This document shows, one piece after another, positions 9,163 to 27,972 of a DNA stretch of 39,288 nucleotides; position 1 is the first letter of the stretch; every line of letters begins with the position of its first letter. Source of the DNA: a virus; IMG/VR virus record IMGVR_UViG_3300023176_005370, positions 1 through 39,288 of that record. One strand, 5' to 3'. A program made the translations under genes and the position numbers. The notes beneath the pieces are model-generated. The model was not told the DNA's origin. It worked only from the letters and a program-made list of their open reading frames with translations, and searched no databases.

Positions 9163-10122
9163 TTAAAGGGCAGGAGAAATCTGACCGATAACGAAAGCTT
9201 TGGTGTTACCGATACCAACACCTACAGACTCGTAAGTCTTGAAGCTAATCATGTCAGCTTCGGCTTTAAGGTATACAGTAGGCTCTTGTAGGCTGTAGAA
9301 CTGGCCTAGGTAAGCTTCTGGTGCGAACGCAATAGCGATATCGCCTTTAGCAGCTTGTTGAGCCGCTTCGTCACCACCGTCTAACCAGGCAGAGTTCAAG
9401 ATGTCTGACTTGTTAGAAGTAACGATTTCGAAGCCGTAGAAGCTGTCCATAGAACCGCTGTCGAAGTGACGGCTAGCTACTGCATCACCTAGTTGAGTAG
9501 CAGGCTCACGTAATAGAGCTAGGTACAACTGGTGAGAAAGTAAGATCTTGCCAGGCTTCTGGAATTCGTTAACTAGGTTTTGAACAAGCTGCATGATCTT
9601 GTCAGTAACAGTAGCACCGCTTAGTTCAGTAGTTAGGTAACGCTTACCTTTTTCAGTGTTGAAGATTTCAGCTAGAGCAGCAACGAAGTTGCTATCTTCT
9701 TGTTTCTGAATGTCTTTAACGCTGTTTTCTTGTAGAATGTTACGGATGTCAGTCTTGTATGTAGCAAGCTCATACTTAGACTTAGTGAATTCCGCAGATT
9801 CGATTTTGTGGAAACCTACTTCGTAGCGAGCGCCTTTGAAGTAACGAGTTTCGCTTACACCGTTTAGAGCGATTGTAGCAGCTACAGAATCAGGCTCTTT
9901 CTCGATGATTACTCGAGGAGTATCATCTAGACCACGGTCTAGGTCACTAGCAGTAACCATTTGAGGTGTGAAGATCTTACGGGTAAAACCGTCTTCACGT
10001 AACTTTTGGCGAACGAAAGTAGACATGGCAGCGCCAGCTTCTTTAGTTAGGCCTTGATCGATCTTATCGATGAACGCTTGGTTCAAGAACTGAACGTTCA
10101 GAGTCTCAGTTGCGTATTCCAT
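9163..10122 (-). CDS. Major capsid protein
   Basis: A 319-residue protein with the size, composition and location of an HK97-fold capsid subunit: after protease, scaffold-like and decoration-like genes, before connectors. Features include an N-terminal helical arm, an E-loop-like region (VSETRYFKGARYEVGFHKIE), a spine helix (VTDKIMQLVQNLVNEFQKPG) followed by ILLSHQLYLALLR, and A-domain strands at the end. Residues 25-30 read LTKEAG, matching the K-x-A motif repeated in the scaffold and protease, so an N-terminal propeptide of about 27 residues may be removed. The strong terminator downstream suggests high expression. Confidence 0.85.
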   Translation of the reverse strand: MEYATETLNVQFLNQAFIDKIDQGLTKEAGAAMSTFVRQKLREDGFTRKIFTPQMVTASDLDRGLDDTPRVIIEKEPDSVAATIALNGVSETRYFKGARYEVGFHKIESAEFTKSKYELATYKTDIRNILQENSVKDIQKQEDSNFVAALAEIFNTEKGKRYLTTELSGATVTDKIMQLVQNLVNEFQKPGKILLSHQLYLALLREPATQLGDAVASRHFDSGSMDSFYGFEIVTSNKSDILNSAWLDGGDEAAQQAAKGDIAIAFAPEAYLGQFYSLQEPTVYLKAEADMISFKTYESVGVGIGNTKAFVIGQISPAL

Positions 10123-17623: not shown

Positions 17624-19450
17624 TTAATATCTACCATTCTGGCCTTCGCCGAAGTCAGAGCCCATTACGTATGCTGCGATAGGGTCTGTTGACGAGACTT
17701 GGGATGTCTGCCCAAGTGCAGCACCATTCTTAAGTGACCTGGCGATATCGCCGGTCGTCAGTTTAGATACCCAATTCTCATCGAATTTCTTAACGGACTT
17801 AAGGCCTGGTACGAAAGGCTCGACCGATAAATTTGTCTTGCTTATCTTGACTTTATCTATACCCTTAGATTTTAGCTCGTCGATGTGATTTCCATCTAGG
17901 ACAGTTCCAGGGGTCATATGGATGATCTGGTGAGACAGCATCTTGCCTGCGGCGTCCTTAACGTCTACTTCTTCATGATCCTCCTCTAAAGTCTTCTGGA
18001 TATCATTCACATTCACTACCTGGCCAGGTAGATATCCTGTATCCCCAGAATCCTGTACGCGTACGTGCTTGATCATATTCTTGGCGATTAGGTCGAAATG
18101 TCGTTTATCTAGACTATTCCCTGCATTCTCATAGATACGATTAAGTTCATCGGCCATATTCTTACGACCTTCGCCTATTCCACGTAGGGGTACTAACTCT
18201 CTAGGAGAGATGGTTCCATTAGAGATAGCCTGTCCGATCTTAATCTTATCACCTACTCGAACCTCTAGGTCTCGCTCTCTAGGTACGAAATGTTCATGGC
18301 CATTGATAATTACTTTATGGTCATTAAGAGGCGTCTTTATGATATCGTCTACTTTACCGTTCAAGGTCGCTATGATAGCCTTATCCTGGAAGGACTCCTT
18401 AGGGCTGATCAATAGATTATTCGCCTGGTCATACGGGTTGGCCGACTTACCGGCTTTCGCATCGTGCTTGGTAGATAGAATCATCTGGGTCAGTACTTCA
18501 GATGCAGATTGAGCTGCTAGGACACCTACGTTCTCACCTATATCGGGTAGGTGGCCTCGAGAATCATGGCCGTAGCACTTCTGACATACACCCTCTCTCG
18601 CCTCGCAGGTTAACGTAGAGCGAACCTTGATGGTCTTCTTACCGCTCGTAACGAGTTCTTTGTAGTAGGCCTCGTCGATGAGTCTGCCTGCAGTATCATA
18701 TCTGTGCATGATCTTACGTTTATCGCTGACAGGTACTACATCACCATTCGTAGTATGGCAGTCAGGGGTTGTCACTACTTCATGGTACAGGTTAGGCGTG
18801 ATTTCTTTAAATAAGGCACCTGGCTTAGACGTCGATAGCTGAGCCTGTACTGTATTGTTACGCCCCCAGTATGACATCGATAGCTGTTCGGCCGGACTTA
18901 GACCCTCGGCATACGACTTAGTGATTGCTACTGGAATCGGGCTACCATCGATACGCTTAGATATAAGCGGAGACGCCGTACCTTGCATAAGTTGGTGCGG
19001 GTTACCTCGAGCACCGGTCTGAGCCATGATGGCTGCAGTGGAGTCTCTATCTACCAAATACTTCAGGTTATGATTCTTGAGCTTTTCTCCGTACTTATTA
19101 GTTAACTCATTGATCTGAGTATTCTTGGTGTGCTCATCTAGCTTCTTATTCAGAGTAATCTGATCTACCTTACTCTTGAACTCCTGAAGCATCGTATTGC
19201 GGTCTTCTGAATCATTCCAGTAATCATCTAGAGGAGTCGAGTATCCATGCTTAGTGGCTACATCGAAGAACTCGCGGCTGATATTAGAGATGGCATCAGG
19301 TGCATGCGATCCTCCTTCAGAGATGATATCTGAGATGAGATTCTTAACCCCATCCTTATCTAACTCCCTAGTGAGGTCGAACTTATCTTTCACGGAGTCC
19401 GGTAAGAGACTCTTGATCTTTAGAGATCCTGCTGCTATTACATCAGGCAT
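17624..19450 (-). CDS. RNA polymerase beta-prime subunit, C-terminal half
   Basis: A 608-residue protein matching the second half of bacterial beta-prime. GARGNPHQLMQG and FKEITPN align with the bridge-helix region (GARGSAAQIRQL in bacteria). Four Cys (one in TTPDCHTTNGD, three in TCEAREGVCQKCYGHD) match the secondary zinc site. RGHLPDIGENVGVLAAQSAS followed by LTQMILSTKHDAKAG matches the conserved GEAIGVIAAQS and trigger-loop region. The N-terminus aligns just after the point where the 22481-25495 product ends, so the two proteins together rebuild beta-prime. AGGAG precedes the ATG. Confidence 0.92.
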   Translation of the reverse strand: MPDVIAAGSLKIKSLLPDSVKDKFDLTRELDKDGVKNLISDIISEGGSHAPDAISNISREFFDVATKHGYSTPLDDYWNDSEDRNTMLQEFKSKVDQITLNKKLDEHTKNTQINELTNKYGEKLKNHNLKYLVDRDSTAAIMAQTGARGNPHQLMQGTASPLISKRIDGSPIPVAITKSYAEGLSPAEQLSMSYWGRNNTVQAQLSTSKPGALFKEITPNLYHEVVTTPDCHTTNGDVVPVSDKRKIMHRYDTAGRLIDEAYYKELVTSGKKTIKVRSTLTCEAREGVCQKCYGHDSRGHLPDIGENVGVLAAQSASEVLTQMILSTKHDAKAGKSANPYDQANNLLISPKESFQDKAIIATLNGKVDDIIKTPLNDHKVIINGHEHFVPRERDLEVRVGDKIKIGQAISNGTISPRELVPLRGIGEGRKNMADELNRIYENAGNSLDKRHFDLIAKNMIKHVRVQDSGDTGYLPGQVVNVNDIQKTLEEDHEEVDVKDAAGKMLSHQIIHMTPGTVLDGNHIDELKSKGIDKVKISKTNLSVEPFVPGLKSVKKFDENWVSKLTTGDIARSLKNGAALGQTSQVSSTDPIAAYVMGSDFGEGQNGRY

Positions 19451-20088: not shown

Positions 20089-20943
20089 ATGAATGATAAT
20101 AATGCAAAAATGTCTAGCCTTCAGTTCTCGGAGGCTGTAATAGACGCCTTAGGCGAGAAATTAGAGGTATTAATCGATATCTCTACTGCTCGCAAACTAT
20201 ATCAGGAGATCATCTCCAAACTAGATCGCAATGATCGCTTCGGTTCCGGTTTCATTGGCAGAGGATTAAGCCTAATGAACAAGATCGAAACTGACGGCCA
20301 GAAGGCCTTCAAGATGTCAGCCTACGCTGCCCATCAACTGTCTAGCTTAGCTTATAAGACCAATTCGAATTCCGGATGGGTCCCTAAGGTTGTTAAGCGG
20401 AGAGGAGAGGGTAGCGAACATACTGATAAGTATCTCTTTATCTGGAGCACGGTTAAAGAGGAGTGGATGGAACCACGAGTCAGGGAATGGATCTCTGATA
20501 ATATAGAACGCTTCGAGGTGAAGGATAGCACTCCAGAAGTATTCAATGATGAGCAGGTATACCTGGCTAGAAAATATGTCAGCCTAAGTGTATCTGCACA
20601 AAAACGGGGAGTTGACTTCACGATAACCCTACGTGACCTTGAAGAACTATTGAAAGATAAGCATTGCTACTTTACAGGAGTAGAGTTAGTGCACTTTCAG
20701 CATGATGTATCGACAGTTGTTAATGGTGATGTTGAATTGCCAGATAACTACTTGACTATTGATCGTCTAGATAGTGATAAAGGATATATTCCAGGTAACG
20801 TAGTGTTGGCGTCTCATAAAGCTAATCAATTGAAGGACCGTATGAACACGGAAGATTTCAAGAAAGCGATTGAGGTTAAGAAGCAGCTAGAAGAGAAAGG
20901 TCTTACTAAAGATCAATTACGTCTACTATGTGAGTTATCATGA
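20089..20943 (+). CDS. HNH-family endonuclease (probable free-standing homing endonuclease)
   Basis: A 284-residue protein. The C-terminal domain shows the HNH-type pattern CYFTGVEL ... NYLTIDRLDSDKGYIPGNVV ... KANQLKDRM (about residues 190-260), seen in phage HNH nucleases with a TIDRxDSxKGY core. The N-terminal 180 residues may be a DNA-recognition region. The gene lies, on the opposite strand, between the two halves of the split beta-prime gene, the arrangement expected of a mobile nuclease beside or inside its target. AAAGGAT-type ribosome site; promoter at 20037. Confidence 0.75.
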   Translation: MNDNNAKMSSLQFSEAVIDALGEKLEVLIDISTARKLYQEIISKLDRNDRFGSGFIGRGLSLMNKIETDGQKAFKMSAYAAHQLSSLAYKTNSNSGWVPKVVKRRGEGSEHTDKYLFIWSTVKEEWMEPRVREWISDNIERFEVKDSTPEVFNDEQVYLARKYVSLSVSAQKRGVDFTITLRDLEELLKDKHCYFTGVELVHFQHDVSTVVNGDVELPDNYLTIDRLDSDKGYIPGNVVLASHKANQLKDRMNTEDFKKAIEVKKQLEEKGLTKDQLRLLCELS

Positions 20944-22480: not shown

Positions 22481-25400
22481 TTAGCCTATCGTGATAGGTG
22501 TATTTTCTTGGATCTCTCCGGCCTCCAACGCTCTAAGTGCTTCTGCTTCAGTTTTGAACTTAACAGTTTTCTGCTTAGTGTCAGGTTTGGTCATAGTGAT
22601 CGATCCTAAGATCGCTTCATGACCCGGGGCGTACATCGGTGATCCATATCCTTTACGGGCATCGTGTAGGTGATTAGCTGGCATCAGCTTCTCTTTAGCC
22701 TCACGAATAGCCTCTTCGGTAATAGGAGCATGCATCGACATAGCATCGCCATCGTAGTCCGCTGCGAAGCCTGGTAGATGAAGAATGTTAAGACCGATAG
22801 TCTTTCCTTCGGTAGGAATCGCCTTCATAGCTAGGATGTTGGTCTTCATTAGTGTAGGTGCACGGTTGATGATAATAGGAACTTCGTTAGTCATCTTATT
22901 AAAAGATGCCATCGCCGCCTCCGTCTTATCCTCATATGCCTTCTTGGCTTTAGCAGGGTCGTACCCCTTTTTAGCTAAGTCACGCTTAATGTGCATCTCG
23001 TACATGGTCCATAACTGATCCTTAGGAATCTTAGCTTCGTTAAAGCCTAGATCCGGAGCAGCATAGATAGTACCGCGACCTGACATGTCCTGCTTCTTCT
23101 TAAGAATCTTATCGTGGAAATAACCTGTCTTAGGACCGCCTACACCTCCGATCTGTCGAAGTAAGCCTTTAAGGCCCTGCTTCTTAGTCTTGTAGTTGGT
23201 AGGATCTCCGTTAGCCATTATAGCTTTAACAGAGTTATAGTTATCCATTCGAACTTCTTGAAGAACCGGGTCGAAATCTAACGTCTCATCCTTAAGCTTG
23301 TTTACACCATCATTGATAGTATAGAAGTCGCGATAAAGCTGGTTAACGTCTGTGATATCTAAACTATTACCTCTACGTGCCAATGGACGCATATTAGGTG
23401 GGATAACCGGAAGGTTGTGAAGCATCACTGCTTTACTAGGATCCGAGTAGCCCTGTTTAGATAATCCGTGCAAGTACTTAAGCCTCTTAACGAGAGCATT
23501 TTTCTTACTTACAGATTTCGTTTCAGGAATCATCTTCTTAAGACGATGTACTTCGTCATTCGTATCGATATCAGAAAGCATCTGTTTGAATGCTGCCCCG
23601 GCTACTACCGGTTCAGAGTCATCCGCCTTCTTAGTCATATCTTGAATAGCCGATACATTAATCGTGTCGACGACCTTTTCACTATCAGTATCTATTAGAT
23701 CGAAAAAGCCTTTAGCCTTACGTTTAACAGCAAGCTTACCTGCAGTAATGTCCTCAAACTGTTTCTTCTTCAGACCTAGCATACTTACCACAGGATCTTC
23801 CATAATAGGATTCACCATAGGCTCTGCAAGTTTGAAGTGAGACCATTTAGTCCCGTCTAATCCACCAGTAATGTTTACGTCGAACAGGCCTCCCTTCTCA
23901 GCCTTCATCTGGTTCTGGAATACTGCTTTAGCATTCTGAAGTTCACCACTTGAACGCTTAAGTATCGCTTCATCTGTAAGAGGAGAAATAGATAACTCGC
24001 CGTTACGGTGAGATACGTCTATACCTGATCCTACTAGAGTATCGAAGAACTTCTTGGTTGCGAAGGTAGTCTTAGGTTTCGGTAGAGGGAGTCCTCGTAC
24101 ATATCGATCCCAGTAATCTGCCTGGTCGGTAAGGTTACCACCTTCAGATTTAATCGTACCCATTTCCTTCAAGTTCTTACGAGCATTAGAACCTAATAAA
24201 CCTAAGAATTCCATGTAGCCGATAGACTTGGCACCTTCGTCACCACCCTTAGTTGGCTGGCCGATATTATCATAACCGCCGTTAACGGAGCGTGCAGAGT
24301 AGTTTGCATCCACCGTCTTATCTAACTTAAGGATATATTGAGGCCCTGCAAGAACTTTACTACCGATCGTCTTACCGGTTACTGGATCGTAGATCTCTTC
24401 CGTATCCGATACGCCGTGCTTATCAAGTTCCTGACGAATCTTCTTGATGTTATTCTCTTCTGCGTAGTTCTGTACCAGGTAGGGTTTACCCGTCTTCTGA
24501 GCGATCTTACCCGCTGCAGTTTCTAGTACTTGTCCTAGGTTGATACGAGAAGTTACCGATGCAGGGTTAAGTAGTAGATCTAGAGGCTTACCGGTCTCTC
24601 TCGAGTGAGGCATTAAGTGATCTTCTTGAATCAAAGATACAACACCCTTGTTACCATGCAGGCCAGTGATCTTATCACCCATTTCTAATTGCTTCTCCGA
24701 ACGTACGATGATTCGAATGTTCTTACCAGTGAAGTCGATATCGACAATCTTGCCTACTTCATGGTGATCCCATATCAATGATGCATCCCGATAGGGTGCA
24801 ACCATCGTCTTATGTAATCGGCCAAGAAGTTTATCAGTTTCAGACTGCTGCTTCTCCTCTAAGATCGGCCAGATTATATCCCCATAATGAAGCTCTCTAC
24901 CTTTCTTAGGCATGCCATTAGCTGCAAAACCCTTAAGTTGAGCCGGCTTATATTTACGACCGAATGCACTTTGGAACTTATTAAGGTCTAGTGTAGTCGT
25001 CTTATCGACTTTGTAGTCAAACTTAGATGCATGATTGGATGTCATACTTTCTGCGGCTGAACGGGAGATTACGATACCATCCTCGTGGTTGTAGCCCTTA
25101 TACGGAATGTAACCTACGTGTAAGTTCTTACCGATAGCTAAGTTACCGTTACGAGTATAATTGTTCTCTGCAAGAAGTTGTCCCGCCTCAACTCTATCAC
25201 CGACCTTAAGATTATGCGGCTCGTCATCATGGAAACCTTTCATATTAAACGGAAGGTTATCTACCAGATGCTCGACATGAGTCTGTCCATCGTCGGTCTT
25301 AATCTTGATTGACTTTTCCTTCGCCTCTACTACAGTCCCTGATACAGGGGATGTACTAGAGAATACACCTGCCATTCTCTTAATATATGGCGTACCTGTG

Positions 25401-25495
25401 TGATCTACTGTCTGTACTAAAGGCTCTTCACGCTCTTTTAGAGACAGAGACTGAGGTAAAGCTTTACCTGCCATCGTTAGACGGCCTGGATGATT
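22481..25495 (-). CDS. RNA polymerase beta C-terminus fused to beta-prime N-terminus (exon 2)
   Basis: Exon 2 encodes 1004 residues. Seven of them (NHPGRLT) precede the first Met and align with the conserved NDANRALMG region of beta. The beta part shows GYNHEDGIVIS and GDKITGLHGNKGVVS, with the active-site ED and Lys residues, then SRINLGQVLET and GYMEFLGLLGSNARKNLKEM, the beta C-terminal clamp. Without a break comes beta-prime: GGLFDVNITGG, PVIPPNMRPLARRG, NRAPTLMKTNILAMKA and the catalytic AADYDGDAMSMH (three Asp intact). It stops near GSITMTKPD; the rest of beta-prime is at 17624-19450. The N-terminal beta-prime zinc ribbon is not seen. Confidence 0.92.
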   Translation of the reverse strand, partial: NHPGRLTMAGKALPQSLSLKEREEPLVQTVDHTGTPYIKRMAGVFSSTSPVSGTVVEAKEKSIKIKTDDGQTHVEHLVDNLPFNMKGFHDDEPHNLKVGDRVEAGQLLAENNYTRNGNLAIGKNLHVGYIPYKGYNHEDGIVISRSAAESMTSNHASKFDYKVDKTTTLDLNKFQSAFGRKYKPAQLKGFAANGMPKKGRELHYGDIIWPILEEKQQSETDKLLGRLHKTMVAPYRDASLIWDHHEVGKIVDIDFTGKNIRIIVRSEKQLEMGDKITGLHGNKGVVSLIQEDHLMPHSRETGKPLDLLLNPASVTSRINLGQVLETAAGKIAQKTGKPYLVQNYAEENNIKKIRQELDKHGVSDTEEIYDPVTGKTIGSKVLAGPQYILKLDKTVDANYSARSVNGGYDNIGQPTKGGDEGAKSIGYMEFLGLLGSNARKNLKEMGTIKSEGGNLTDQADYWDRYVRGLPLPKPKTTFATKKFFDTLVGSGIDVSHRNGELSISPLTDEAILKRSSGELQNAKAVFQNQMKAEKGGLFDVNITGGLDGTKWSHFKLAEPMVNPIMEDPVVSMLGLKKKQFEDITAGKLAVKRKAKGFFDLIDTDSEKVVDTINVSAIQDMTKKADDSEPVVAGAAFKQMLSDIDTNDEVHRLKKMIPETKSVSKKNALVKRLKYLHGLSKQGYSDPSKAVMLHNLPVIPPNMRPLARRGNSLDITDVNQLYRDFYTINDGVNKLKDETLDFDPVLQEVRMDNYNSVKAIMANGDPTNYKTKKQGLKGLLRQIGGVGGPKTGYFHDKILKKKQDMSGRGTIYAAPDLGFNEAKIPKDQLWTMYEMHIKRDLAKKGYDPAKAKKAYEDKTEAAMASFNKMTNEVPIIINRAPTLMKTNILAMKAIPTEGKTIGLNILHLPGFAADYDGDAMSMHAPITEEAIREAKEKLMPANHLHDARKGYGSPMYAPGHEAILGSITMTKPDTKQKTVKFKTEAEALRALEAGEIQENTPITIG

Positions 25496-26427
25496 CTTTT
25501 ATATTCGATTAAGGTCGTTACTGCTTAATCCGCGTATTTCCAAACGTATCCCTTATAAGTCTTCCTCTTCCCTTTGCATACTTTTGTTATACAGGAAGGG
25601 TCCATACCTAGAGCTAGTGAAGCTTCTTTTATCGAATCGTATCTCGTAGATATTTCATCTTTTAAGGCTATTACAGGTTTTCTAGTCTTGGCCGTACGTT
25701 TAGCTATTGTAGAAGCAGATTGTACATGACCTAATTTAGAAAGCCTCATCTTATCTCTAGTCTCCGTAGACACTGGAGGTAGTTTACGCCCCCGCCTACT
25801 TATACTCATATTACGTTTGGTCTCTTCGGTATGATTACCCCAGCTCTTACCTGTACGTCTGCGAGAGACTTCCTCCCTAGCGTACTTATACAAGTGGCTA
25901 CTTTGAGTCCGACCTACGCACATCATATTCCATGCATACGTCAGAGAGTCATTGTCTGGGTGCATTTTAGCTAAGAGCCAATGTGCTAAAAAATGTTCAC
26001 GAGCAGTTAATGCTACTAAGTTTGTCGGAGAATCATCTCCTCCTAAGCACCTAGGCTTTATATGATGTATCTCTACATATCCTTGATACTCAGATAGTCT
26101 TGCATTATCTATCAATTCGTTATATATTCTTTCGTAATTCATACTTACTTCGCTGCTTTACGTTACCGTAAAGAATAGACTATATCTTCACCCGTTCTGG
26201 GTGCCCACCACTTCGAGTCACTTGACTCTACTCCGTCTCCGGATAGTCGTTGAACGTTCTCCATAGCAAATGCCTTAGGAGCTTCGCTGCTGATTGTCCC
26301 GCTATGTCCTTATTTTAAAACCTTTGTACCTTCTTTCGAAAATACCGTGGTTAAGAACACCAAGGATATCCCAGCAATTCAATGGGTTTTCACTTATAGA
26401 TTCCTCTATAAGGCAGCTAATCAATTA
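25496..26427 (-). ncRNA. Group I self-splicing intron in the RNA polymerase gene
   Basis: A 932-nt intron. P1 is visible: exon CAGU plus intron UAA pair with UUAGCUG, with a U-G pair at the 5' splice site. Intron GAUU can pair with exon 2 AAUC (P10), and the last intron base is G. Core elements on the minus strand are P (AATTGCTGGGATATCC, 26379-26364), Q (AATCAGCAGCGAAGC, 26295-26281), R (GTTCAACGACTATCCGG, 26255-26239) and S (AAGATATAGTC, 26188-26178); R and S pair as P7 (GACTAT/ATAGTC). Splicing gives PFFNS-NHPGRLTM, aligning without gaps to bacterial PFLEHNDANRALM. An HNH gene lies after S. Confidence 0.93.
25525..26142 (-). CDS. Intron-encoded HNH homing endonuclease with NUMOD-type modules
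   Basis: A 205-residue protein inside the group I intron, starting shortly after the S element. The HNH core is YVEIHHIKPRCLGGDDSPTN followed by LVALTAREHFLAHWLL. Next come Arg/Lys-rich repeated modules (NMSISRRGRKLPPVS, MRLSKLGHVQSAS) typical of NUMOD DNA-binding segments, and a C-terminal helix-turn-helix-like SIKEASLALGMDPSCITKVC ending KGYVWKYAD. It probably cuts intronless alleles of the polymerase gene, causing intron homing. The start lacks a strong ribosome site, as is common for intron genes. Confidence 0.9.
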   Translation of the reverse strand: MNYERIYNELIDNARLSEYQGYVEIHHIKPRCLGGDDSPTNLVALTAREHFLAHWLLAKMHPDNDSLTYAWNMMCVGRTQSSHLYKYAREEVSRRRTGKSWGNHTEETKRNMSISRRGRKLPPVSTETRDKMRLSKLGHVQSASTIAKRTAKTRKPVIALKDEISTRYDSIKEASLALGMDPSCITKVCKGKRKTYKGYVWKYAD

Positions 26428-27972
26428 ACTGTTGAAGAATGGAACCATGTTGGTGGTTACCGTATACATATCAGATCCGGCTGGAATCCAATATTGTACC
26501 TCGCTCTTATTTGCCTCTCTGAACTTACCCTTATATTGGGTCATTGTGGTCTTCTTGCCGTCTTTCCTCATTCCGTCTGGAAATCCTATTACGGAATTCA
26601 TCATCTCGTTAGATGACAGGTAGACTTCTTTGCCGCTTCTATCCAATACTCGAGCATACATATTACCCTCGCTGTCTCGACGTGCTGTCATTGTGAAACG
26701 CTGATCGATACCGGCCATGGCAGATTCAGGGGTACGGGAAGGATCCAATATACCTAAATGCGATGGGTCGACGTTACGCGCTTCGTCCGGTACGCCCTTC
26801 TCAGAAGCGATACCGCCGTAGCCCGGTCCGATTACAGTAGCCTTACCTACGTTCTCGATAGATTCAATAGGATTGGTTTCACTAGGGGGAGACGCTAGAG
26901 TACTGTTGTTGATAAAGTTTGTATATACCTTATTGAAAGGCTTAGCGCCTAGAACAGAACGGATCTTAGGATCGTTCTTATCCACTTTATCCAGCGAGCG
27001 CTGAATGTTTTTGATCGGGCCTGTTACATTCTCATTGCCTTTAGCAAAGTGAGAGCTGATGAAATCAGGTAGGCCTAGTACGCGTTTGAACTGCAGGCTG
27101 TCTCGGTTATCTTCTGCACGCTCACCTCTCTTGATATCGATGATGTTCTTACAAGAAAGAAGAATCGTCTCGGCAGTGATATGAGAGAAGCTTTTACCTA
27201 GAGTAGTCTGGGTCGTATCGACGTCTAATTTAGAATTCTGAAGGGCCTCTTTAAGGGCTTCTGCTTTATCTTCGATAGATAGAGATTTATCCTGAATACG
27301 CTTATTAACCATCTTGCTATATAAGCTATTGATTACTTTAGTGTCTCGACCCTGGGCGTCCTTCATATTCGGCTCTACTATATCCTTAGGGATGTAGCGC
27401 TCGATAGTTGCACGGTCTAATCCGAATACTTTGGTCAGTAATACGAATAGACTTAGACCGCTGGACTTAGATCCACCTGCACGAATCTTGAATAATAAAG
27501 TCTCAGGCTCTAGGATAATCGATAAGCCAGCTCCGCTTCCAGTGTTGAAAGAGGATTCCAGTTCTCCGTTATCGCGACTGCGAGTATATACTCCAGGCTT
27601 AAGAACAACGAGATTAGCGACATTATAATTGTTTCCTTTATAAACCTGCGTATGCTTACCGGTCAATGCATAAGTATCAGCAAGACTGAAGTTCTTAACT
27701 GTATCGATAAGCTTATTAGTTTTCTTGTCGTACATCTTAACTGTACCGCGAACTGGGTACGTTAGAGACTTACTACGAAGAATAGCATCTTTCTCGTCTT
27801 TATGATCGAAAAACTTCTTATCGGCATGAACATCTTCTACTTCAATGCGGTAGTTGGCGTTCTCTATAGGAAATGTCGAAGAGATACCTTCGATCATCGC
27901 CTTGTCCGTTCTATCGTTTATCTCATGAGGACTTGAAAAGATAGGTATTAAATCACTGGCCTTCTTGGGCAT
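26428..27972 (-). CDS. RNA polymerase beta N-terminal part (exon 1)
   Basis: Exon 1 encodes 515 residues of beta. The region TYPVRGTVKMYDKKTN ... ADTYALTGKHTQVYKG ... LVVLKPGVYTRSRDNGELES corresponds to the beta protrusion, where bacteria have [22 protein letters not shown]. Later come DSLQFKRVLGLPDFISSHFA and the fork-loop region NPIESIENVGKATVIGPGYGG, DEARNVDPSHLGILDPSRTPES (bacterial REVHPTHYGRMCPIETPEG). The frame ends at TAA, the first intron codon, just before the conserved NDANRALMG segment. Spliced to exon 2 it gives a 1519-residue fusion. Overlaps the upstream gene by 20 nt. Confidence 0.9.

What the first reader, a model, noticed from the sequence alone, without database searches (positions are those of the whole stretch)
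25496..26427. Group I intron with HNH gene interrupts a phage RNA polymerase beta gene
Splice sites can be set to the base. P1 (CAGU+UAA with UUAGCUG, U-G at the splice site), P10 (AAUC with GAUU), the terminal G, the P, Q, R and S elements, and a P7 pairing of R and S all agree. Splicing restores a gap-free match to the conserved NDANRALMG region of bacterial beta. Without splicing, beta stops at residue 515, so polymerase function depends on the ribozyme. Group I introns are known in phage genes, but I do not know of a described one in a phage multisubunit RNA polymerase gene.
Basis: partly seen in the sequence, partly recalled or inferred. Interest (0 to 1): 0.88.

Follow-up and report, generated by a model that had tools for sequence, protein, structure and literature searches.

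The report
Mobile self-splicing intron in phage polymerase
A self-splicing RNA intron that carries its own DNA-cutting enzyme gene sits inside a phage RNA polymerase gene, two codons from where a different intron interrupts the same kind of gene in another phage; the type of element is known, the site and phage group are new.

Summary
Confirmed. Window 26427-25496 (minus strand, 932 nt) is a group I intron (Rfam RF00028, 107.7 bits, E 3e-27) with an HNH-type homing endonuclease gene after P9. It interrupts a phage multisubunit RNA polymerase gene. Vibrio phages D181/D148 carry the same intron with identical junctions. D69, Salmonella phage Arash and 45 IMG/VR contigs are uninterrupted there. 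D181 and D69 are nearly identical genomes but diverge on both sides of the insertion (dS 0.55 against 0.04), as intron homing with co-conversion would leave. In Arash the uninterrupted orthologue is the most detected virion protein (PMC10585845), so this is probably a virion polymerase. The novelty claim fails: a group I intron in a phage multisubunit RNAP beta gene was published for PhiPA3 (PMC11620839). New here: another phage group, and an insertion two codons (6 bp) from the PhiPA3 site with an endonuclease showing no detectable similarity to gp210. Splicing and cleavage were not tested.

The parts
26428..27972 (-). Exon 1: residues 1-515 of the beta-beta'N fusion; the unspliced ORF stops at the TAA that begins the intron
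   Evidence: aligned without interruption to exon 2 in intronless relatives
25496..26427 (-). Group I intron, 932 nt, ends with G; probably subgroup IA2 (P7.1 and P7.2 present)
   Evidence: whole intron alignable to D181 at 77.9%
26414..26431 (-). P1: exon CAGU plus intron UAA paired with UUAGCUG; the guide also holds GAUU for P10
   Evidence: alignment; fold; sequence
26393..26412 (-). P2 hairpin CUUAUAGA/UCUAUAAG; 1 of 8 pairs compensatory in D181
26367..26379 (-). P element (5' strand of P4) AAUUGCUGGGAUA
   Evidence: element name recalled
26286..26300 (-). Q element GGGACAAUCAGCAGC
   Evidence: element name recalled
26244..26255 (-). R element GUUCAACGACUA; GACUA is the 5' strand of P7
   Evidence: element name recalled
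26177..26188 (-). S element AAGAUAUAGUCU; UAGUC is the 3' strand of P7
   Evidence: element name recalled
26156..26173 (-). P9 hairpin CUUUACG/CGUAAAG; 3 of 7 pairs compensatory in the Salmonella phage GEC_vB_MG intron
25525..26142 (-). HNH-type homing endonuclease gene, 205 aa, with NUMOD3-like and I-HmuI NUMOD-like C-terminus
   Evidence: 74% identical to the D181 copy, pN 0.17 against pS 0.75
25492..25496 (-). 3' splice site: last intron base G (25496) and the first four exon bases AAUC (25495-25492), P10 partner
22481..25495 (-). Exon 2: rest of beta (Rpb2 domain 6) fused to the beta' N-terminal part including the AADYDGD active-site motif
   Evidence: the motif's role is recalled
17624..19450 (-). 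Separate gene for the beta' C-terminal part, 608 aa
   Evidence: 57% identical to Arash Gp216, 62% to D181_0271

Best explanation
This is a mobile group I intron in an Arash-like phage multisubunit RNA polymerase gene (beta-beta'N fusion). Inferred mechanism: the transcript folds around P3-P9; free GTP attacks after the U of CAGU (U.G in P1); the freed exon 1 attacks after the terminal G, aligned by P10 (GAUU/AAUC); exons join in frame to give a 1519-aa subunit. Ribosomes on unspliced RNA stop at the UAA at the first intron codon, which may keep them out of the ribozyme. The HNH protein then cuts or nicks intronless alleles of the gene in a co-infecting relative, and repair copies the intron plus flanking exon DNA into them. 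Shown by sequence: ribozyme core, splice sites, reading-frame restoration, presence/absence alleles, a divergent tract around the insertion, a conserved endonuclease frame. Inferred: splicing, cleavage, direction of transfer. By analogy with PhiPA3 gp210 the endonuclease may also handicap co-infecting phages that lack the intron.
For: Rfam match 107.7 bits, E 3e-27, full length. Frame restored, 1519 aa, no internal stop. Identical junctions in D181. Uninterrupted frame at the same codon boundary in D69 and Arash and in 45 IMG/VR contigs, represented by 62 fetched loci, 62 of 62 with one alignment spanning residues 500-530. First 285 nt of the intron 263/284 identical between window and D181, the endonuclease part 434/618, the exons 64-73% in bins of 100 nt or more. 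21 pairs of P7.1, P7.2, P8 and P9 hold in all 3 sequences compared, 5 with changes on both sides; P2 1 of 8 in two sequences. Window and D181 both have CAGT at -4..-1 and AATC at +1..+4; 0 of 28 intronless loci tabulated have both. D181/D69: dS 0.55 in codons 201-650 against 0.040 in codons 1-180 and 651-end; within 120-170 kb, 10 of 232 aligned 200-bp windows are under 95% identity: 6 flank the intron, 4 flank endonuclease genes annotated in only one of the two phages. Endonuclease pN 0.17, pS 0.75.
Against: No RNA data: splicing is not shown. HNH Pfam models alone fall below their cut-offs (HNH 17.3 bits against 21.4, HNH_4 18.2 against 22), as does NCBIfam's group I intron endonuclease model (27.6 against 56.05); only the NUMOD-like domain passes. 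The window is a 39-kb virus record without a named relative. Distinct intron-bearing alleles number only two, since D148 equals D181 over 6251 bp. D181/D69 also has low-identity windows elsewhere: 9 of 206 in the first 50 kb, 7 of them in the tail-gene region and 2 at 25.0-25.4 kb with no endonuclease annotated beside them; 62 of the 500 windows could not be compared. 3 of 15 bins inside the tract are 96-98% identical. The tract cannot be polarised: D69 might have lost the intron by replacement.
Confidence: 0.93

Rival explanations
1. A dead intron: the ribozyme no longer splices and the two exons are translated as separate subunits, like the split beta genes of jumbo phages.
For: Exon 2 has an internal ATG at 25474 giving a 997-aa ORF, and split RNAP genes are known in jumbo phages (PMC7598289, one passage read). 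Some relatives split this same fusion at another place; the loci scanned show no Rfam intron there.
Against: The internal start drops the segment NHPGRLT, which is invariant in the 10 sequences of alignment A2 and differs only by H to S in 3 of 28 loci. The core is 93% identical to D181 while exons are 64-73% in bins of 100 nt or more, P1, P10 and the terminal G are intact, and 62 of 62 intronless loci read through.
Confidence: 0.04
2. The intron is real and spliced but no longer mobile; its presence in window and D181 is old vertical inheritance with losses elsewhere.
For: Endonuclease and polymerase divergence between window and D181 are similar (pS about 0.75 in both, pN 0.17 and 0.21).
Against: D181/D69 show a divergent tract around the insertion, and the endonuclease frame is intact and under purifying selection. 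Saturated pS cannot date anything.
Confidence: 0.15
3. An assembly chimera placed an intron between unrelated exons.
For: The window is a virus record of 39,288 bases, possibly a fragment.
Against: The separately deposited phage genomes D181 and D148 hold the same arrangement, with junctions identical to the base.
Confidence: 0.005

Closest known systems
PhiPA3 gp210 intron in the virion RNAP beta gene gp211/209 (Birkholz et al. 2024, PMC11620839, passages read; core found)
   Same: Group I intron with an HNH-type endonuclease gene in a phage multisubunit RNAP beta gene, in the same motif (E. coli beta 673-676)
   Different: Insertion two codons downstream (675|676 against 673|674); intron 1352 nt by the junctions I set; endonuclease gene lies 5' of the core, overlapping only the first 44 nt of the Rfam match, rather than after P9; endonuclease 330 aa with HNH_3 and a weak NUMOD1 match, no blastp match to the window protein at E<=1
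HPP-Temi (Pawinskivirus) RNAP beta intron
   Same: Group I core (70.5 bits) in the same beta motif
   Different: At the PhiPA3 site, about 348 nt, no endonuclease annotated in it, only a hypothetical protein of 39 codons
Vibrio phage D181/D148 intron (OZ196140, OZ196545)
   Same: Same gene, same codon boundary, same architecture, 77.9% identical over the whole intron
   Different: No intron feature in the record; the two exon ORFs are called hypothetical proteins
Salmonella phage GEC_vB_MG DNA polymerase intron (SSE121 scores the same but was not opened)
   Same: Closest ribozyme outside this gene among the 40 of 201 records listed: 83% over intron 1-65 and 77% over 176-275
   Different: Sits in a DNA polymerase gene; its HNH_3 endonuclease gene lies between those two stretches, inside the core
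I-HmuI-type nicking homing introns of SPO1-like phages (recalled; titles seen in the reference list)
   Same: Group I intron plus HNH/NUMOD endonuclease; PF22083 match
   Different: DNA polymerase genes of Bacillus phages; endonuclease placement differs (recalled)

Membership tests
Group I intron (RF00028) | Conserved catalytic core recognised by covariance model | tested here: met
   107.7 bits against gathering 50, model 1-253 complete
Group I intron (RF00028) | U.G at the 5' splice site in P1, terminal G, P10 | tested here: met
   same in D181
Group I intron (RF00028) | Precise interruption of a gene that is continuous in relatives | tested here: met
   D69, Arash and 45 IMG/VR contigs continuous
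Group I intron (RF00028) | GTP-dependent splicing | not testable with these tools
   Needs RNA work
Group IA2 subgroup | P7.1 and P7.2 hairpins between the P7 5' strand and the P3 3' strand (definition recalled) | tested here: met
   Both hairpins in the fold and kept in 3 of 3 sequences, P7.2 with a compensatory change; no subgroup model was run
HNH homing endonuclease | HNH catalytic domain | tested here: inconclusive
   Pfam HNH 17.3 bits, HNH_4 18.2, both below cut-off; PHROG 655 homing endonuclease E 2.7e-49
HNH homing endonuclease | NUMOD-type DNA-binding C-terminus | tested here: met
   PF22083 32.8 bits, cut-off 27
HNH homing endonuclease | Cuts or nicks the intronless site | not testable with these tools
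   Needs purified protein; the divergent tract is indirect support
Phage multisubunit RNA polymerase | beta and beta' conserved domains | tested here: met
   PF00562 192.7 bits, PF00623 57.3 bits, beta' C part PF04998 77.3 bits, all above cut-off; PF04997 (37.8 against 39.7) and PF05000 (23.8 against 24.8) just below; exon 1 alone has no Pfam hit
Virion-packaged RNAP | Subunit present in particles | tested here: inconclusive
   Only for the orthologue: Arash Gp206 has the most spectra in purified particles, Gp216 also present; the authors leave carry-over open (PMC10585845, passages)
PhiPA3 gp210-type vRNAP intron as a homologous element | Same insertion site | tested here: not met
   Two codons apart
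PhiPA3 gp210-type vRNAP intron as a homologous element | Related endonuclease | tested here: not met
   No blastp match at E<=1; different best HNH models

The most novel reading that the evidence does not exclude
The short beta motif around E. coli residues 673-676 in virion RNA polymerases is a recurrent homing target: at least two introns with unrelated endonucleases settled 6 bp apart in distant phage groups, and in the Arash-like group the HNH protein acts, as gp210 does for PhiPA3, by attacking the virion polymerase gene of co-infecting phages without the intron.
Probability: 0.4. Interest if true: 0.68.

Novelty: new member of a known kind. Interest (0 to 1): 0.5.

Why it matters
It is a second, separately placed group I intron in a phage multisubunit RNA polymerase beta gene. 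The two intron types have endonucleases with no detectable similarity but lie two codons apart in the same conserved motif, which suggests that homing endonucleases favour it because phages cannot easily change it. Vibrio phages D181 (with intron) and D69 (without) are close relatives, so homing, marker exclusion and competition could be tested in a phage group other than the nucleus-forming phages where the PhiPA3 result was found. It also bears on the published idea that split phage RNAP genes arose through intron mobility (PMC7598289, one passage read): this clade holds intron-interrupted, intact and split versions of one gene, although the split lies at another place than the intron.

Tried and rejected
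Searching for more intron-bearing alleles: the 18-base P1 stretch hit 9 IMG/VR stretches, none with a match to the intron, beta or the endonuclease, so chance matches. Searching IMG/VR for endonuclease relatives gave 20 loci and 80 (the best 80 of 93); none of these 100 holds the beta gene. So the intron is rare in what I could search. These 9 + 20 + 80 loci do not enter the presence/absence count for that reason.

Interruptions near residues 1131-1143 in many relatives looked like a second intron (gaps of 82-3151 nt between aligned pieces). In the three loci whose ORFs I listed (L166, L177, L188) the pieces are separate ORFs. The nine loci scanned gave no Rfam match, and L015, L018-L020, L023-L025, L027 and L029 none; ten of the 19 contigs that one search added were not scanned. 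Rejected as introns.

Polarising the D181/D69 tract: inside it the window is about equally far from both, so I could not say which phage changed. The omega value of 0.034 rests on a near-saturated dS and is not used; only pN and pS are quoted. Intein sites in eukaryotic RNAP lie near the active site too (PMC1635734, passages), but I did not map them to this motif.

AR9: the genome paper is not held; the 2017 paper says gene g190 lies in an intron of late gene g189 (PMC5312081, one passage), which I did not identify as an RNAP gene. I found no paper that describes this intron; searches; only open-licence PMC papers are in that library, and the listings were capped.

Full report
The observation. 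The window (a 39,288-base virus record) has on its minus strand an ORF of 515 aa (27972-26425), then an HNH-type ORF of 205 aa (26142-25525), then an ORF of 997 aa (25474-22481). Rfam's Intron_gpI model matches 26437-26156 over its full length with 107.7 bits, E 3.1e-27, the only family above its gathering score in the window. Leaving out 26427-25496 joins the outer ORFs into one frame of 1519 aa with no internal stop. The intron starts with an in-frame TAA, so unspliced translation ends exactly at the splice site. The free fold of the core is 4.45 standard deviations below shuffles.

What the gene is. Exon 2 matches RNA polymerase Rpb2 domain 6 and, further on, Rpb1 domains 1 (just below cut-off) and 2; NCBIfam's best hit is a beta/beta' fusion model, far below that model's whole-protein cut-off. 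Exon 1 alone has no Pfam or PHROG match; it belongs by alignment to intronless relatives. So the product is beta fused to the first part of beta', up to just past the AADYDGD motif. The rest of beta' is a separate gene at 19450-17624, 57% identical to Arash Gp216. In Arash, Gp206, the uninterrupted orthologue, has the highest spectrum count in purified particles (3516) and Gp216 is fifth (PMC10585845, passages read). The authors offer early transcription or carry-over as explanations. I take a virion polymerase as likely, not shown.

Relatives. Vibrio phages D181 and D148 have the same insertion at the same codon boundary; they are identical over 6251 bp and count once. D69 and Arash have one continuous ORF. 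Two scans of IMG/VR gave 26 and 45 loci, 45 distinct contigs in all, counted by hand from the contig names; 62 of 62 locus records run uninterrupted over the insertion point. Rfam found no group I core at gathering threshold in L006-L031 or in nine of the later loci; ten of the 19 contigs that one search added were not scanned for RNA.

Ribozyme constraint. Between window and D181 the first 285 nt of the intron are 263/284 identical, the endonuclease region 434/618, and the exons 64-73% in bins of 100 nt or more. Against D181 and a Salmonella phage DNA polymerase intron, 21 pairs in P7.1, P7.2, P8 and P9 are standard in all 3 sequences and 5 show changes on both sides; P2 shows 1 of 8 between window and D181; P7 itself does not vary. 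UAUU after P7 could pair with AAUA before the end (a P9.0-like pairing); both are conserved, without covariation. Among 28 intronless loci (L003, L004, L006-L031), 4 have CAGT before the site and 7 have AATC after it, none has both; window and D181 have both. Four of the 28 have TAGT with AATC, which would also fit with a G.U pair.

Mobility. D181 and D69 are nearly identical: of 500 windows of 200 bp in 100 kb of each genome, 438 could be compared, with a median of 100% in both 50-kb blocks. In their polymerase genes identity is 98.5% beyond 1 kb upstream and 95% from 1000 to 600 bp upstream; between 600 bp upstream and 400 bp downstream of the insertion 12 of 15 bins are 72-93% and 3 are 96-98%; beyond that it is 98.5-99.8%. 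dS is 0.55 in codons 201-650 and 0.040 in codons 1-180 and 651 to the end. In the 120-170 kb stretch 10 of 232 windows are below 95%: six flank the intron, one flanks an HNH gene annotated only in D181, three flank one annotated only in D69. In the first 50 kb 9 of 206 are below 95%, seven in the tail-gene region and two at 25.0-25.4 kb without an annotated endonuclease beside them. The pattern around the intron is what homing with co-conversion of flanking exon leaves (recalled; reviews appear in the listing, not read). It does not say which phage changed. The endonuclease frame is conserved, pN 0.17 against pS 0.75.

Precedent. Birkholz et al. 2024 (PMC11620839, passages read) describe a group I intron with the HNH enzyme gp210 in the PhiPA3 virion RNAP beta gene, inserted after two aspartates, the second equivalent to E. 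coli beta D675; gp210 nicks the uninterrupted gene of phiKZ and, when it reaches the phiKZ nucleus, lowers phiKZ progeny. In an alignment with E. coli RpoB, D69, Arash, phiKZ gp178, Phabio, Carin-5 and YerA41, the window's insertion falls between E. coli residues 673 and 674 and PhiPA3's two columns further on, between 675 and 676. HPP-Temi has a core at the PhiPA3 site without an annotated endonuclease. The two endonucleases show no blastp match at E 1 and different best HNH models; the endonuclease gene lies after P9 here and before nearly all of the core in PhiPA3. The ribozyme cores do resemble each other (70% over window intron positions 90-251), as phage cores do more widely (201 phage records match the window's intron). 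So the same motif was hit at least twice, by elements whose endonucleases differ; independent insertion is my inference.

Verdict. The reading of the sequence is right and the splice sites are firmly supported by relatives. The claim that such an intron was undescribed in a phage multisubunit polymerase gene is wrong. What remains new is the phage group, the site, the near-coincidence with the PhiPA3 site, and the D181/D69 pair as a test system. Interest 0.5.

Noticed in passing
L002 (Vibrio phage D181) about 9246-9491, minus strand: A second, short group I intron (about 246 nt between the tblastn pieces, no gene inside) splits the portal gene near codon 21; a GIY-YIG endonuclease gene lies just upstream. 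D69 lacks the intron and has an HNH gene there instead; the window's portal gene is intact.
   Followed up: partly
L166, L177, L188 and other relatives, fusion residues about 1131-1143: In part of the clade the beta-beta'N fusion is broken between aligned pieces by 82-3151 nt; in the three loci looked at it is two ORFs, and no Rfam intron was found in those scanned.
   Followed up: partly
window 20089-20943 (+): HNH/endonuclease VII-like ORF with Srd anti-sigma-like profile matches lies between the beta-beta'N and beta'C genes.
   Followed up: no
L058 (phiKZ) 941-1262: A group I core (92.2 bits) next to gp179, just upstream of the virion RNAP gene gp178; which gene it interrupts was not worked out.
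   Followed up: no
window residues 516-517 of the fusion: The aspartate pair at E. coli beta 674-675 is NH here (NS in 3 of 28 relatives), while the arginine at 678 is kept.
   Followed up: no
L053/L054 25001-25400 of D181/D69: A divergent patch (92.5-94%) between the two near-identical phages without an annotated endonuclease beside it.
   Followed up: no
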